From Lachnospiraceae bacterium (GTDB lineage: Bacteria > Bacillota > Clostridia > Lachnospirales > Lachnospiraceae), in the NCBI GenBank assembly GCA_017470985.1, contig JAFUXA010000009.1:1-64000 (forward strand): a stretch of DNA of 64,000 bases. Direction: 5' to 3'. Shown piece by piece: positions 23,711 to 32,377 of the stretch. The stretch's first letter is position 1; the number at the start of each line of letters is the position of its first letter. Under the pieces are notes generated by a model. That model had not been told where the DNA came from, searched no databases, and saw nothing but the letters and a program-made list of their open reading frames with translations. Made by a program: the position numbers and the translations under genes.

Positions 23711-24658
23711 ATGATTATAAACACAGGGATGCGCACGGATATTCCGGCGTTTTATTCAGAATGGTTATTAAACAGAATACGAGAAGGTTATGTGCTTGTA
23801 CGTAATCCTTATAATCCATTTCAGGTGACAAAATATAGTCTGTCACCGGAGGTGGTAGATCTGATTTCTTTTTGTACGAAGAATCCGGCACCAATGCTAC
23901 CACGCATGGATATTTTAAAACCATATGGACAGTACTGGTTTGTGACAATTACACCTTATGGGCGAGATATTGAACCGAATGTTCCTGAAAAGCAAAAGGT
24001 GATGGAAGATTTTAAGATGCTATCAGATACAGTAGGTGTTGATAGCGTTGGTTGGCGTTATGATCCAATATTTGTTGATGGAGAACATTCTGTAGAGTGG
24101 CACATTGGAGAGTTTGAACAGATGGCCAAGAATCTTGCGGGATATACAAGGACTTGCGTAATTAGTTTTATCGATATATATAAGAAGGTGGAACGCAATT
24201 TTCCAGAAGCCAGAGAAGTATATAATAGTGATAGGTTAACTCTGGGGAAAGCGTTTATTGATATTGCGAAGAAGTATGATATAACAATTCGGCCGTGTGC
24301 AGAAGGAAATGACCTTGAACCATACGGGGCAGATTGCAGTGGTTGTATGACGGTAAAGACCTTTGAAACAGCGCTGCATGCAAAACTTGATGTCCCGAAG
24401 AGAAGTAAGAATCAACGTAACGGGGAATGTGCCTGCCTACTGGGGACGGATATTGGAGCTTATGATACCTGTGGGCATCTATGCAGATATTGTTATGCAA
24501 ATACAAATCCTGAACTTGTAAAAGAAAATATGAAAATACATGATCCGAAGTCACCATTTCTTTTGGGACATGGCACGCCGGAAGATATTATCCATGTGGC
24601 AAAACAGCAAAGCTGGATTAATCAACAGATTTCTATGTTTGATTTGAATTTGGTGTGA
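23711..24658 (+). CDS. DUF1848 family protein
   Basis: 315 residues. The N-terminus NTGMRTDIPAFYSEWLLNRI and VRNPYNPFQ, the middle DPIFVDGEHSVEWHIGEFEQ and the C-terminal cysteine cluster ECACLLGTDIGAYDTCGHLC followed by RYCYANTNP match the DUF1848 family, which is distantly related to radical SAM-type photoproduct lyases by fold predictions. The cysteines probably bind a metal cluster. Biochemical role unknown. ATG 23711 follows TTGGTGGC. Confidence 0.85.
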   Translation: MIINTGMRTDIPAFYSEWLLNRIREGYVLVRNPYNPFQVTKYSLSPEVVDLISFCTKNPAPMLPRMDILKPYGQYWFVTITPYGRDIEPNVPEKQKVMEDFKMLSDTVGVDSVGWRYDPIFVDGEHSVEWHIGEFEQMAKNLAGYTRTCVISFIDIYKKVERNFPEAREVYNSDRLTLGKAFIDIAKKYDITIRPCAEGNDLEPYGADCSGCMTVKTFETALHAKLDVPKRSKNQRNGECACLLGTDIGAYDTCGHLCRYCYANTNPELVKENMKIHDPKSPFLLGHGTPEDIIHVAKQQSWINQQISMFDLNLV

Positions 24659-24813: not shown

Positions 24814-24869
24814 TTATCTTAGGGAGTCTGCAAGAATTGCGAGGGTTTTATTATTACGGAGGAATTACT

Positions 24870-25270
24870 ATGATTTATATTACCGGAGATACGCATGCCG
24901 GCTTTAAACATAGATTTAATATGGATAATTTCCCTGAACAAAGGGAAATGACTAAGGATGATTATGTGATTATTTGCGGTGATTTTGGTGGGAACAGGAA
25001 CTTGCGAATGAAGAAGAGATGGAAGAAGGCAGAAACAACTTGCGAAAGCATGATTATACTGTGGATTTTATTATTACACATTGTTGTTCTAGTAGTACGC
25101 AGCTGTTATTGGGAGGCGCTATGTATAAGCCGGATAGAGAGACGGATTATTTGGAGTTTATAAAAAACAATGTGAACTATAAAAAGTGGTTCTTTGGACA
25201 CTACCACGATAATAGAAATATATTAGATAAAGAGATTTTAATCTATGAACAAATGATTCGAATCTCATAA
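24870..25270 (+). pseudogene. Metallophosphoesterase gene with internal deletion and frameshift
   Basis: ATG 24870 with GGAGG upstream begins MIYITGDTHAGFKHRF and continues to DDYVIICGDFGG, the start of a calcineurin-like phosphoesterase. At about 24992-25000 the reading frame changes; the next frame continues ELANEEEMEEGRNNLRKHDY, DFIITHCCSS and KKWFFGHYHDNRN to the stop at 25270, the family's C-terminal half. The central metal-binding part (GNHE region, roughly a hundred residues in relatives) is missing. No functional enzyme is expected. An intact, different metallophosphoesterase lies at 31046. Confidence 0.8.
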
Positions 25271-27940: not shown

Positions 27941-28073
27941 TGTTATGTATGACAATTATGTTGAAAAAAACACGTAAATATGTTATTAATAACAATATGG
28001 GAATTCTCAAATGAAAATATGTCATAGAAGACATAAATATAATTATTTTGCAAAAATTATGTTATACTTAACA
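27941..28073. promoter_or_regulatory. Array of four evenly spaced palindromic operators upstream of the XRE-AAA-TOPRIM operon
   Basis: Four 14-mers fit TGTYATNNNNRACA or a one-base variant: TGTTATGTATGACA (27941-27954), TGTTATTAATAACA (27981-27994), TGTCATAGAAGACA (28020-28033) and TGTTATACTTAACA (28060-28073). Start-to-start distances are 40, 39 and 40 bp. Each is preceded by ATA or TTA. The last overlaps an extended -10 box TGTTATACT (28060-28068) and ends 18 bp before the XRE start. The layout predicts cooperative repression by the XRE protein encoded just downstream. Confidence 0.75.
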
Positions 28074-28091: not shown

Positions 28092-28418
28092 ATGAATAAC
28101 GAAGATATGAAAGCTATATTTGAACAGATTGATAATTTAAAGAAACCTGATAAGAAATCAGGAGAGGTAGAAATAAAAATGCCAAATGACACATTAAGTG
28201 AGGTGCTAAAAGGAGTGTCAGAGGAGATACAAAGGGTACTGGATGAGAATAATTATACGCAAGAAGATTTGTGCCGTATTACAAATATGTCTCAATCAAA
28301 CATTAGTAAAATACAAAATGGGAAAGTGGTTCCAAGGATTGAGACATTGCAGAAAATAGCAGTCGCTACACATACAAAGCTCGTAATTAGCTTTGAAAGT
28401 ATGGAAGGAGATGAGTAA
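28092..28418 (+). CDS. XRE-family regulator of the defence-like operon
   Basis: 108 residues. The first 40 are charged and probably disordered; residues about 45-100 form an HTH (IQRVLDENNYTQEDLCRITN, then MSQSNISKIQNGK). The fold is that of antitoxin-like XRE repressors. ATG 28092 follows AAAGGGCG. The ATPase gene begins two bases after its stop. The four palindromes upstream are its likely binding sites. Confidence 0.85.
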   Translation: MNNEDMKAIFEQIDNLKKPDKKSGEVEIKMPNDTLSEVLKGVSEEIQRVLDENNYTQEDLCRITNMSQSNISKIQNGKVVPRIETLQKIAVATHTKLVISFESMEGDE

Positions 28419-28420
28419 GA

Positions 28421-29545
28421 ATGGCAAGTATCAAATTAATTGAGATTAATGGGCTTAGAGGAATTAAAAAGCTTACAGTTTCTGATTTATCAAAAATAAA
28501 TCTCATAGTCGGAGATAACAATAGCGGTAAAACTACGTTTTTAGAGGCAATCCAGCTACTGTTTGCTGAATCACAATTAAGCTCTGTTAAAAATGTTATA
28601 AATCAGAGAACCGTTCTTAATCTTCATGATAATAGTTTTTATACTTCATTTATAAAAATGTTCAATGTGGAGCAGGATAATAAACTATTAGATTTTGATA
28701 TCTATGCAGAAAGCAATAAGGGGCAGATTGTATTTGAAATGAAAGGGCGTGAAAAGGTTGTATCTGGAGATGATGCACTTCAAATATCTACTATGTCATC
28801 ACGTCAAAAGGCAACATATAAAAAATCATCAGCAATTCTTCCAGAAACAGTGAAGGTGTTTTCGGGAAGTATTATTAGTCAAAATGGTAAAAAGCCAATA
28901 GAGAAAGAGATACAGTTTACATCTTTGGATACTACGGTTACAGGACCTGTTATCAAAAAAAAGGTTTACTATATACCTTCTTTTGGACATTTGAGATTTG
29001 ATTTGTTGCAGAATATTGTTGATAACCCTGAATATAAAAAATTAGCTATTAGTATTTTGAAACAGTTTGATGATTCTATTGTAGATATCTGTTATACAAA
29101 GGCAGATGATGGTTCATTTCTTGAATCTGTTATTACGGAGAACGGAGTTATTATGCCTTTCTCTGTTTATGGTGATGGTATTAAGAAAATACTTTATATT
29201 ATGAATAAATTATTTGAAGCATCAGATTCAATTTTATTGATTGATGAAATAGAGACAGGATTACACAAGAAATATTATGAATCATTATTTCCTGTAGTAT
29301 TTGCACTGGCAAAAAAACTGAATGTGCAACTGTTTATTGCAACACATAGCATGGAAGCTATTGATGCAATTCTAAAGTATGGTGAATATGAAGAAAAAAC
29401 AAATGACAATGATCCTATTAAGGTTATTACATTAAAGAAAGTAAATACAGAAAACGGGAAAGGAAGCAATGTAGTTGCCCGAAATGTAACAGGAAAATAT
29501 GTATATGAAAACCGAAAAGCATTTGAATTTGAGGTGCGCCTATGA
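28421..29545 (+). CDS. AAA/OLD-like ATPase, candidate anti-phage sensor
   Basis: 374 residues, an ABC-type ATPase of the AAA_15/AAA_21 (OLD) clan. Walker A is GDNNSGKTT near 30-38, Walker B is SILLIDEIETGLHKK near 269-283, and a switch-type LFIATHSMEAID follows near 304. There is no C-terminal TOPRIM domain as in single-chain OLD nucleases; that domain is encoded by the next gene, which overlaps by four bases (ATGA). Split ATPase plus TOPRIM pairs are the layout of PARIS (AriA/AriB) and related defence systems. Assignment to a named system is not possible from sequence alone. Confidence 0.85.
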   Translation: MASIKLIEINGLRGIKKLTVSDLSKINLIVGDNNSGKTTFLEAIQLLFAESQLSSVKNVINQRTVLNLHDNSFYTSFIKMFNVEQDNKLLDFDIYAESNKGQIVFEMKGREKVVSGDDALQISTMSSRQKATYKKSSAILPETVKVFSGSIISQNGKKPIEKEIQFTSLDTTVTGPVIKKKVYYIPSFGHLRFDLLQNIVDNPEYKKLAISILKQFDDSIVDICYTKADDGSFLESVITENGVIMPFSVYGDGIKKILYIMNKLFEASDSILLIDEIETGLHKKYYESLFPVVFALAKKLNVQLFIATHSMEAIDAILKYGEYEEKTNDNDPIKVITLKKVNTENGKGSNVVARNVTGKYVYENRKAFEFEVRL

Positions 29546-30288
29546 TGACAGAAGTAATGCTTGTAGAAGGCGTAACAGATATCCAGCTCATTAGTTATTA
29601 TTTACAAAATGTATATGGCTGGAAGTATGAAAAAAATAACAATTTAGGAATTGTTCCGTTAGATGAACATGATCACATAGAAAGTTTGTCTAAAGGTGAA
29701 AATCAACTTGTATTATGTGGAGTAGGTGGAAATGGGCGGTTTGCACATTTTGTAGAACAGCACCGCATTAGCAGCATGATAGTAGAGCGAGATATAACTT
29801 CATTAATGGTCGTTACAGATAGGGACGAAGATTCCATTGGGAAAGTAGCACGTAGAATAAGGGGTTCATTAGAAGGAATTACTATACAAGTAGGAGATTG
29901 GGCAGAAAATAAAATAACTGATTCATTTGGACAGGAAAAATGTATGAATACATATCTGCTAATAATTCCTGCAGAAAAGGCTGGAGCATTAGAGAACGTA
30001 ATAATAGATGCATTAAAAGATATTCCTGAAGAAACAGCGTTGATAGAGGAGGTAATTCAGTTTATTGAGTCTTTAAAGGCTGAAATTGTTCCAGAGTTAG
30101 TGCAAACAAATAAAGCTGACAAAGCCAAAGTTGGTACATTTTTTAGCGTGCGAGATCCGAAAAATGCTATGAGATCTTTTGGAGCATTTATCGCTAAAAT
30201 TGATTGGGCGAAGTCAGAATCGTTAAAAGATTTATTTCTACCATTTAAGAGTTTGGGAGAAGAAAAAGAATGCAATACACAAGCCTGA
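29542..30288 (+). CDS. TOPRIM-domain protein (DUF3226/DUF4435-like), candidate effector nuclease
   Basis: 248 residues starting in an ATGA overlap with the ATPase gene. The TOPRIM signature is visible: the acidic motif LVEGVTD with Glu9 and Asp13, and VVTDRDED near 89-96 providing the DxD pair. The middle has CGVGGNGRF near 57. These residues would bind metal for nucleic-acid cleavage. The C-terminal third is helical and charged. With the preceding ATPase it forms a likely sensor-effector pair. A fourth gene starts inside its last codons but is broken. Confidence 0.8.
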   Translation: MMTEVMLVEGVTDIQLISYYLQNVYGWKYEKNNNLGIVPLDEHDHIESLSKGENQLVLCGVGGNGRFAHFVEQHRISSMIVERDITSLMVVTDRDEDSIGKVARRIRGSLEGITIQVGDWAENKITDSFGQEKCMNTYLLIIPAEKAGALENVIIDALKDIPEETALIEEVIQFIESLKAEIVPELVQTNKADKAKVGTFFSVRDPKNAMRSFGAFIAKIDWAKSESLKDLFLPFKSLGEEKECNTQA

Positions 30289-30596
30289 AATCATATAAAT
30301 TGAAAAAGGGAAAATTTATATCTCCGTGGAACGAACTTGCATATTACGTGTAATCCTTTGGACAAAAAACAAAGATTATCTTAGGAATTGCAACATATTC
30401 ATATAAGCGATTGGAAGAAGCAGAAATGCATAACTTATATAATTCTATTTCTGGACGCTCCACAGTAAGAGCTATGATAGAGAATTACATAATGCTGAAA
30501 TATTTGTCTATAAAAGAAAGTGAAAAAGAAAATATATGGGATGATTATGAACAATATGGAATAGGACAATATTGTATTAGCGTTCAAAAAGAATAG
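30270..30596 (+). pseudogene. Broken fourth gene of the XRE-AAA-TOPRIM operon
   Basis: ATG 30270 lies inside the end of the TOPRIM gene and reads MQYTSLKSYKLKKGKFISPW then NELAYYV before TAA at 30351. The same frame continues without interruption as SFGQKTKIILGIATYSYKRL to GRSTVRAMIENYIMLKYL and WDDYEQYGIGQY, ending at 30596. The second part resembles a DUF5677-like domain (Arg and Glu in a helical repeat). It is too short for a whole protein, so a nonsense change and probably a deletion have occurred. A short product from TTG 30411 cannot be excluded. Confidence 0.6.
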
Positions 30597-31045: not shown

Positions 31046-31600
31046 ATGATTTTTTATACTAGTGATTTACATTTAGGACATGCCAATGTAATTAGATTCG
31101 ATAAGCGACCTTTCGCTGATGTTGAGGAAATGGACCAATATATTATTACTCGATGGAACAATCGAGTATCAGAAGATGATACCGTTTATATCTTGGGAGA
31201 TATCTGTCATAGAAATAGTCGCGATTCCTCATGGTATTTGAAGCAGCTTAAGGGGCACAAAATTCTTATTCTAGGGAATCATGATAATCCTATTTTGAAG
31301 AATAAAAGGGCATGTAGTTGCTTTGATAAAGTGGACAAAATGATGCAGGTGGTTGATGAAAAGAGGCAGATTACTCTGTGTCATTATCCTATCGTGGAAT
31401 GGAATGCTTATTTTCATGGTTCATGGCATATCTATGGTCACATTCATAACAAGAAAGAAGAAACGTTTAAGATTATGAGTAAAAAAGAACATGCGCTCAA
31501 CGCTGGCTGCATGATAAATAATTATGTGCCTGTTACGTTTGATGAATTAGTTGAAAACAATATGCTTTTTAAAGCTAATGATAACTTGGGGAGGGATTAG
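31046..31600 (+). CDS. Calcineurin-like metallophosphoesterase
   Basis: 184 residues with the complete set of metal ligands: DLHLGHANVI near 7-16, GDICHR near 51, GNHDNP near 77, CHYPIVEW near 111 and IYGHIHNK near 129. Compact single-domain phosphoesterases of this type are common in Firmicutes and on mobile elements; the physiological substrate is unknown. ATG 31046 follows TTAGGAGG. A truncated small gene starts three bases after its stop. Confidence 0.88.
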   Translation: MIFYTSDLHLGHANVIRFDKRPFADVEEMDQYIITRWNNRVSEDDTVYILGDICHRNSRDSSWYLKQLKGHKILILGNHDNPILKNKRACSCFDKVDKMMQVVDEKRQITLCHYPIVEWNAYFHGSWHIYGHIHNKKEETFKIMSKKEHALNAGCMINNYVPVTFDELVENNMLFKANDNLGRD

Positions 31601-31714: not shown

Positions 31715-32377
31715 ATGAGAAGAAGCAAAAGCTATGAAGTAAGAAATCCAATGAATATATGGAATAAATATGATTTTGTCATGTCGGGCCTTGGAAAGAA
31801 AAGTAAAACCTTGGCGAATATAAAACACTTTTTCAAATGCGTAAAGTGGAGTAAACAGCGTATTACAAGGGGCTACTGTGATTACGATGTTTGGGAGATG
31901 TTTTCTTTTCTTCAGACGATTATTCCGGATATGCTACAAACGCTGAAAGATACAAGAATGGGATCGCCAGGATATCTAGGAGAGAATTATACCAATGAAA
32001 ATGGAATTCTTGTAAATGATACCTGCCATGAGGAGTGGAATTGCATTTTAGACAAAATGATATTTTTATGGCGAGAAGCTGATGAAAATACCTGCTCACA
32101 AAAGAATCCGTATGATGAAGAGCATTCCAAAGCAATGGATGAATTTACAGAACGATTTGGATTGTTAGGAAATAAACTTCAAACTGAGAAAGAATTAGAA
32201 GAAAATAGAAAACGCGGTGGTGGAGGAACAATTCATTTTATGGATGAGTTGCCTGAGTATAAAGAAATTTCCGATAAATATCGCGAAGAAGAAGAGCGTC
32301 TGGAAGAATATAGAAGAACTTGTAAGGATGAAGCTATAGATATGCTTAAACAATACTTCTATGACCTGTGGGATTGA
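31715..32377 (+). CDS. Conserved hypothetical protein of phage/plasmid type
   Basis: 220 residues, no membrane segment. A basic, aromatic N-terminal part (IKHFFKCVKWSKQRITRGYC, then DYDVWEMFSFLQTIIPDML) precedes a region rich in Asp, Glu and Trp (CHEEWNCILDKMIFLWREAD) and a C-terminal coiled coil rich in Glu and Arg. Proteins with the RGYCDYDVWE-like motif occur widely in accessory parts of Firmicutes genomes. Function unknown. ATG 31715 has TGGATTGG upstream, a weak ribosome site; another start is possible. Confidence 0.6.
   Translation: MRRSKSYEVRNPMNIWNKYDFVMSGLGKKSKTLANIKHFFKCVKWSKQRITRGYCDYDVWEMFSFLQTIIPDMLQTLKDTRMGSPGYLGENYTNENGILVNDTCHEEWNCILDKMIFLWREADENTCSQKNPYDEEHSKAMDEFTERFGLLGNKLQTEKELEENRKRGGGGTIHFMDELPEYKEISDKYREEEERLEEYRRTCKDEAIDMLKQYFYDLWD

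What the first reader, a model, noticed from the sequence alone, without database searches (positions are those of the whole stretch)
28092..30288. Candidate anti-phage system: XRE regulator, OLD-like ATPase and TOPRIM protein
The three genes overlap or nearly touch. The ATPase has Walker A and B but no TOPRIM domain; the next gene supplies a TOPRIM domain with EGVTD and DRDED. Known split systems such as PARIS use an ATPase sensor with a TOPRIM effector. The added XRE regulator with its operator array and a fourth gene distinguish this locus. It sits among gene fragments, typical of defence islands.
Basis: partly seen in the sequence, partly recalled or inferred. Interest (0 to 1): 0.75.

Follow-up and report, generated by a model that had tools for sequence, protein, structure and literature searches.

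The report
Self-repressed ATPase–TOPRIM defence module
Three overlapping bacterial genes look like a virus-defence device, a sensor plus a nucleic-acid cutter, probably kept in check by its own repressor through a row of evenly spaced DNA switches; the two-protein core was already catalogued as an untested defence candidate, and the switch layer is what makes this variant interesting.

Summary
Window 28092-30288 encodes an XRE regulator, an ABC/OLD-type ATPase without TOPRIM, and a TOPRIM (DUF3226) protein. The last two match PADLOC's candidate pair PDC-M38 full length (A 9e-124, B 9e-136), so the pair is not new; passages of one paper call such candidates unvalidated. It may work like PARIS but fails its Pfam rule (DUF3226, not DUF4435). 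What stands out is a conserved three-gene operon: XRE precedes the ATPase in 18 of 20 related loci (one XRE truncated; two loci lack that side), and XRE-bearing ATPases form one clade (99/99). Upstream lie up to four TGTYAYNNRTRACA sites; 36 of 43 neighbouring spacings are 37-41 bp, 6 of 43 are 28-30 bp. The last overlaps a probable extended -10. This predicts autorepression by a HigA-like protein that also bears a conserved N-terminal peptide on a variable linker. The 'fourth gene' is a broken DitA remnant. Defence is inferred: relatives sit beside Pycsar-like or Wadjet genes in 2 of 4 loci chosen by eye. Structure prediction never ran.

The parts
27941..27954 (+). Operator O4 (TGTTATGTATGACA)
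   Evidence: 40 bp from O3
27981..27994 (+). Operator O3 (TGTTATTAATAACA, perfect palindrome)
   Evidence: 39 bp from O2
28020..28033 (+). Operator O2 (TGTCATAGAAGACA)
   Evidence: 40 bp from O1
28060..28073 (+). Operator O1 (TGTTATACTTAACA), containing a probable extended -10 (TG-T-TATACT; hexamer 28063-28068)
   Evidence: the 20-mer TTATGTTATACTTAACATAA is identical in L004/L058. The promoter is inference: no -35 is evident and the scan did not list it
28092..28418 (+). XRE/HigA-like regulator: conserved N-terminal peptide (7-19), variable linker (20-36), HTH and C-terminal strand
   Evidence: HTH_3 2.4e-10; profile hits HigA 6af3_B E 0.0011; regional conservation
28421..29545 (+). ABC/OLD-type ATPase, PDC-M38A; predicted sensor and partner of the TOPRIM protein
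   Evidence: PDLC04608 9.1e-124, residues 1-373; AAA_21/AAA_15
29542..30288 (+). TOPRIM (DUF3226) protein, PDC-M38B; predicted effector nuclease
   Evidence: PDLC04622 9.1e-136, residues 1-244; DUF3226 1.8e-17; invariant E9, D13, D93, D95, E151
30270..30596 (+). Remnant of a DitA-family gene (not part of the module): first piece matches DitA 2-23, later piece 273-349 of 486, stop between, C-terminus missing
   Evidence: pieces scanned apart, (E 0.0068, weak, and 5.6e-32)

Best explanation
A chromosomal, probably horizontally acquired three-gene anti-phage module of the split OLD/PARIS kind. The XRE protein binds the phased operator array, covers the probable extended -10 and holds the operon at a low level. 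The ATPase assembles and holds the TOPRIM protein inactive (as AriA does AriB). A phage-made disturbance changes the ATPase, the TOPRIM nuclease is released and cuts nucleic acid, most likely RNA such as tRNA, stopping growth before phage is made. Shown here: gene content, motifs, conserved linkage, conserved phased operators, purifying selection. Inferred: repression, the inhibitory complex, trigger, substrate and abortive outcome.
For: Full-length match of both proteins to PDC-M38A/B. ATPase profile (13 rows) hits solved PtuA 4.2e-12, AriA 6.7e-8, OLD 2.1e-7. Acidic residues of TOPRIM type invariant in 12 rows, ATPase motifs in 13 rows. 4-nt ATPase/TOPRIM overlap in 18 of 18 loci that keep that junction, window included. 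XRE upstream in 18 of 20 related loci, one of them truncated. 62 operator matches upstream of 19 XRE genes against a mean of 5.1 (maximum 13) in 100 shuffle rounds; 33 of 43 spacings at 38-42 bp against 0.02. Operators 74-87% identical, DNA between 31-40% (15 loci). The phased pair pattern occurs only here in the own genome, reversed control 0. Patchy spread: 16 of 397 genomes of a family sample, own included; 0 of the 2 other genomes of the genus. Low-GC stretch. Defence neighbours in L042 and L048. PARIS mechanism: passages of PMC12409363. AAA proteins neutralising TOPRIM_OLD toxins in two Firmicutes pairs: passages of PMC10440598.
Against: I found no phage or toxicity data for any member. 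PDCs described as unvalidated (passages of PMC12988326). No structure was predicted. The TOPRIM protein alone and its close-family profile find no TOPRIM chain in the PDB; only the diverse profile reaches PH0156 (2.2e-5) and, not significantly, retron Ec67 (0.58). The AriA model is unspecific: it rings in 14 of 14 control genomes. Of the 4 loci whose neighbours I scanned, chosen by eye, L047 gave nothing and L052 only UvrD-type helicase matches. 9 of 22 ATPases in the tree have no XRE directly upstream, so the core does not need the regulator. Loci compared are homologous and not independent, so shuffle counts overstate the evidence.
Confidence: 0.68

Rival explanations
1. The XRE protein is a third working part: a HigA-derived antitoxin whose conserved N-terminal peptide, on a flexible linker, binds the ATPase or TOPRIM protein, so that the state of the complex feeds back on the operator array (conditional cooperativity, or release on infection).
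For: Residues 7-19 are 75% identical among 14 rows while linker 20-36 is 26% and the HTH 82%; HigA 6af3_B is the second hit of the XRE profile, E 0.0011.
Against: No partner shown; the peptide could serve XRE self-association on the array; autorepression alone explains the linkage.
Confidence: 0.25
2. A toxin-antitoxin-like genome stabiliser with no phage role: the ATPase neutralises the TOPRIM toxin, XRE sets the dose.
For: TA-like order and coupling; AAA/TOPRIM pairs behave as TA in assays (passages of PMC10440598).
Against: No TOPRIM match in 72,556 plasmid records or 50,697 phage records or in two IMG/VR TOPRIM scans; defence neighbours in 2 of 4 loci scanned.
Confidence: 0.15
3. A non-defence ATPase/nuclease operon, for instance in DNA or RNA repair.
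For: An archaeal OLD-family ATPase, Cran1, acts in the cell cycle (start of abstract in the listing).
Against: Patchy presence: 3 of 295 (order), 16 of 397 (family), 4 of 398 (phylum), own genome included each time; absent from the 2 other genomes of the genus; decayed copies L059, L060, L061.
Confidence: 0.1

Closest known systems
PADLOC candidate system PDC-M38 (PDC-M38A/PDC-M38B)
   Same: Both proteins match over 366 of 367 and 244 of 246 profile positions
   Different: PADLOC's system rule was not visible to me, so whether it mentions a regulator is unknown. 9 of 22 sampled ATPases of the kind have no XRE directly upstream
PARIS (AriA/AriB)
   Same: Separate ABC ATPase and TOPRIM genes (passages)
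   Different: TOPRIM is DUF3226, not DUF4435; ATPase prefers PDC-M38A (9e-124 against 7.8e-23) and no AriB-named model is among the TOPRIM protein's 6 PADLOC matches; XRE and array
AbiL (AbiLi/AbiLii, RloB-type)
   Same: AbiLi is the best non-PDC match of the ATPase (8.5e-41); two-gene abortive infection plan (passages)
   Different: No AbiLii- or RloB-named match of the TOPRIM protein
HigA antitoxins / XRE autorepressors
   Same: Profile positions 36-102 align with HigA 6af3_B 26-93; autorepression expected
   Different: No HigB-like gene among the ORFs I inspected beside it (by eye); partners are ATPase and TOPRIM; array of up to four phased sites
Repressors of defence systems (BrxR/CapW, CapH, RptR)
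   Same: Dedicated repressor encoded with a defence system (passages of PMC12255303)
   Different: BrxR/CapW are WYL proteins (same passages); here a HigA-like XRE with up to four evenly spaced sites

Membership tests
PDC-M38 | ATPase matches PDC-M38A over its length | tested here: met
   PDLC04608 9.1e-124, protein 1-373, profile 1-366/367
PDC-M38 | adjacent TOPRIM protein matches PDC-M38B over its length | tested here: met
   PDLC04622 9.1e-136, profile 1-244/246
PDC-M38 | anti-phage activity | not testable with these tools
   PDCs described as unvalidated (passages); no paper naming PDC-M38
PARIS | AAA_15 or AAA_21 above the published cut-off (32 and 27; PMC9122126) | tested here: met
   AAA_21 75.6 bits, AAA_15 74.2 bits
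PARIS | DUF4435 partner | tested here: not met
   partner is DUF3226, 64.3 bits; DUF4435 not among its 4 matches at E up to 1
AbiL | AbiLi-type ATPase | tested here: inconclusive
   8.5e-41, but PDC-M38A far better
AbiL | AbiLii/RloB partner | tested here: not met
   no such name among the matches at E up to 1
One-chain OLD nuclease (OLD, GajA) | ATPase and TOPRIM in one chain | tested here: not met
   two ORFs with 4-nt overlap, likewise in the 18 of 18 loci that keep the junction
HigA-type antitoxin | HigA-like HTH by sequence | tested here: met
   6af3_B E 0.0011, HTH_3 2.4e-10; modest scores
HigA-type antitoxin | neutralises a cognate toxin | not testable with these tools
   contact with TOPRIM or ATPase untested

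The most novel reading that the evidence does not exclude
A tripartite defence module in which a HigA-like XRE protein is both a cooperative repressor on a helically phased array of up to four operators and, through a conserved N-terminal peptide on a flexible tether, a direct partner of the ATPase/TOPRIM complex, so that infection both releases the nuclease and switches the operon on.
Probability: 0.25. Interest if true: 0.65.

Novelty: new variant of a known kind. Interest (0 to 1): 0.45.

Why it matters
How split ATPase/TOPRIM systems are dosed is, as far as I know, little studied. This clade offers a compact, testable case: a dedicated regulator, a conserved array with spacings near three or four DNA turns, and a comparison group of the same core without the regulator. 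It also gives PDC-M38, a catalogued but untested candidate, a defined operon, residues to mutate and named isolates to test (Butyrivibrio sp. Su6, VCD2006, AE3009; Fusibacillus kribbianus; titles).

Tried and rejected
Fourth gene as a component: rejected; two pieces of a DitA-family gene with a stop between, ORF homologue in 0 of 20 related loci and in none of the unnamed loci searched. The DitA name is PADLOC's; that it belongs to the Aditi system is my recall, and a paper search did not confirm it. PARIS membership: rejected on DUF4435. Phage or plasmid carriage: no TOPRIM match in plasmids, phages or IMG/VR; the IMG/VR ATPase scan gave 28 remote ATPases that I did not follow. Empty-site comparison: failed; flank DNA matched the two other genomes of the genus only in short stretches or not at all. 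A regulon elsewhere: 7 single sites in the own genome, two of them here, against 5 for the reversed control, so no evidence. RNA-repair-like genes near two relatives (read by eye as RtcB and an RNA ligase) were not tested. Structure prediction: every try answered 'busy', so no fold search was run. One search was a failed script, repeated.

Rows dropped: three near-identical Butyrivibrio loci (L046, L048, L050) were anchored on over-long starts, so only their outer two operators were counted; L049 of the same group shows four. These three and L060 (truncated XRE, no array) were left out of the operator conservation count (15 of 19 loci), and L046 out of its XRE count (14 of 15 rows). Four loci kept there (L045, L051, L055, L059) are 86-89% alike in pairs. 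A8 and A9 left out L048, L050, L059 and L060; A7 left out L057 and L059-L061. The tree used 10 of the 18 named XRE loci, the window and 11 unnamed rows; L032 and L034 are long branches there. Broken or partial distant copies (such as L035, L037, L038, L041) were not used.

Full report
Observation. The ATPase carries Walker A (GDNNSGKTT), a signature-like YGDGIKK, Walker B (ILLIDE) and ATHS, core residues invariant or nearly so in 13 diverse rows, and no TOPRIM match. The next protein has EGVTD and DRDED; E9, G10, D13, D93, D95 and E151 are invariant in 12 rows, ten of them at 22-26% identity to it and one at 70%. Pfam names it DUF3226 (64.3 bits, cut-off 27); OLD-like_TOPRIM scores 19.1, below its cut-off of 23.2. 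dN/dS against three relatives is 0.04-0.24 for the three genes, with dS above 1 in eight of nine comparisons and so rough.

Identity. PADLOC-DB 2.0.0 holds both proteins as a candidate pair, PDC-M38A (9.1e-124) and PDC-M38B (9.1e-136), full length; the best other names for the ATPase are AbiLi (8.5e-41) and AriA (7.8e-23). The AriA hit by itself means little: that model rings in 14 of 14 control genomes. No held paper names PDC-M38 or DUF3226. Passages of PMC12988326 describe PDCs as found by guilt-by-embedding and unvalidated. By profile, the ATPase's nearest solved chains include PtuA 4.2e-12, AriA 6.7e-8 and OLD 2.1e-7. The TOPRIM protein alone, and its close-family profile, find no TOPRIM chain; the diverse profile finds PH0156 (2p62) at 2.2e-5 and, not significantly, retron Ec67 at 0.58.

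Linkage. A scan of one genome per species with a TOPRIM alignment gave 20 loci, 16 of them titled Lachnospiraceae or Butyrivibrio. XRE lies directly upstream of the ATPase in 18 of 20 (truncated in L060); L057's contig begins inside the TOPRIM gene and L061 keeps only its end. The 4-nt ATPase/TOPRIM overlap is present in 18 of 18 loci that keep that junction, window included. L046, L048, L049 and L050 are about 97-98% identical over kilobases and count as one. In a tree of 22 ATPases the 13 with XRE lie on one side of a branch with 99/99 support and the 9 without on the other; absence of XRE was judged from the ORFs upstream and a search with the window's XRE. So the regulator joined the pair once, or was kept by one clade. 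Homologues are patchy: 3 of 295 genomes (order), 16 of 397 (family), 4 of 398 (phylum), own genome included each time and some matches partial; 0 of the 2 other genomes of the genus. L059 has a split TOPRIM gene, L060 a truncated XRE and broken ATPase, L061 a remnant: copies decay.

Operator array. In the window four copies of TGTYAYNNRTRACA (at most one mismatch) start at 27941, 27981, 28020 and 28060, 40, 39 and 40 bp apart. Upstream of 19 XRE genes there are 62 matches with at most two mismatches, against a mean of 5.1 and a maximum of 13 in 100 rounds of dinucleotide shuffles; 33 of 43 neighbouring spacings are 38-42 bp against a mean of 0.02. In full, 36 of 43 are 37-41, 6 of 43 are 28-30 and one is 72; four of the six short ones come from the one near-identical Butyrivibrio group, the others from L055 and L058. 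Both classes fit whole helical turns, so sites would lie on one face; that step is inference. The loci are homologous, so these counts are not independent, but operators are 74-87% identical between 15 loci and the DNA between them only 31-40%. The promoter-proximal site reads exactly TGTTATACTTAACA in 8 of the 15 loci where it was captured; it contains TG-T-TATACT, an extended -10. No -35 is evident and the sigma-70 scan did not list it, so the promoter is inferred. In the own genome the phased pair pattern occurs only here (two overlapping matches, control 0). A remote XRE locus, L027, has a different sequence repeated three times about 29-30 bp apart (read by eye): the same plan with other letters.

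Regulator. The XRE profile's first two PDB hits are DBP48 (8tac_A, E 0.00092; a designed protein by my recall) and the HigA antitoxin 6af3_B (E 0.0011). Conservation is bipartite: residues 7-19 at 75%, linker 20-36 at 26%, HTH 82% (14 rows). A conserved short peptide on a variable tether suggests a binding partner, perhaps ATPase or TOPRIM; nothing here tests it.

Surroundings. GC is 0.31-0.35 over 27.5-32.5 kb, 0.35-0.40 on the left and 0.40-0.46 from 32.5 kb on the right, as for an acquired stretch. Of 10 neighbours scanned with PADLOC, a DUF1848 protein matched RTasDUF1848 (4.9e-37), a phosphoesterase PDC-S10 (1.8e-6) and an XRE gene RmrA (2e-5); seven gave nothing. In relatives, L042 has PycC and PycTM matches next door and L048 JetB3/JetC3 upstream and a type IV restriction match downstream; L047 gave none and L052 only UvrD-type helicase matches (8 proteins of 4 loci, chosen by eye, so a biased sample).

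Mechanism. From passages of PMC12409363: AriA hexamers hold AriB inactive, phage proteins trigger release, AriB cuts tRNA. From passages of PMC10440598: AAA proteins neutralise TOPRIM_OLD toxins in two Firmicutes pairs, and AbiLii is a TOPRIM-type effector. By analogy the ATPase here is sensor and brake and the TOPRIM protein the effector; the XRE protein and array add a transcriptional brake. The analogy is not membership: the PARIS rule (AAA_15 or AAA_21 with DUF4435; passages of PMC9122126) is not met, nor is an AbiLii/RloB partner found.

Verdict. A conserved, selected operon; the core is an already catalogued candidate, the XRE/array clade a variant of it. Defence is likely but unproven. 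Searches for a published description of an XRE-controlled ATPase/TOPRIM pair (listings; passages of PMC10568477, PMC9519451, PMC12255303, PMC10440598) showed none, which is not proof of absence; preprints are not held and PADLOC's own system rule was not visible.

Noticed in passing
window 23711-24658: DUF1848-type protein matching PADLOC RTasDUF1848 (4.9e-37); no reverse transcriptase was looked for beside it.
   Followed up: no
window 31715-32377 and L044 7946-8608: The same phage-type gene family (phrog_11543, unknown function; 1e-8 and 2.9e-7) flanks the module in the window and in UBA3804, perhaps shared cargo.
   Followed up: partly
window 24837-25270 and 31046-31600: Two phosphoesterase-like genes: the first (by eye only) seems split into two overlapping ORFs, the second matches phage phosphoesterases (phrog_547).
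   Followed up: no
L048 192-5262: Wadjet type III-like JetB3/JetC3 pair upstream of the module in Butyrivibrio.
   Followed up: partly
L042 2873-5667: Two genes both matching PycC on either side of a PycTM-like gene: a Pycsar-like cluster with two cyclases.
   Followed up: no
L027 upstream of 8654 (minus strand): Three copies of an AT-rich palindrome-like element 29-30 bp apart before a remote XRE gene (by eye): same array plan, different operator.
   Followed up: partly
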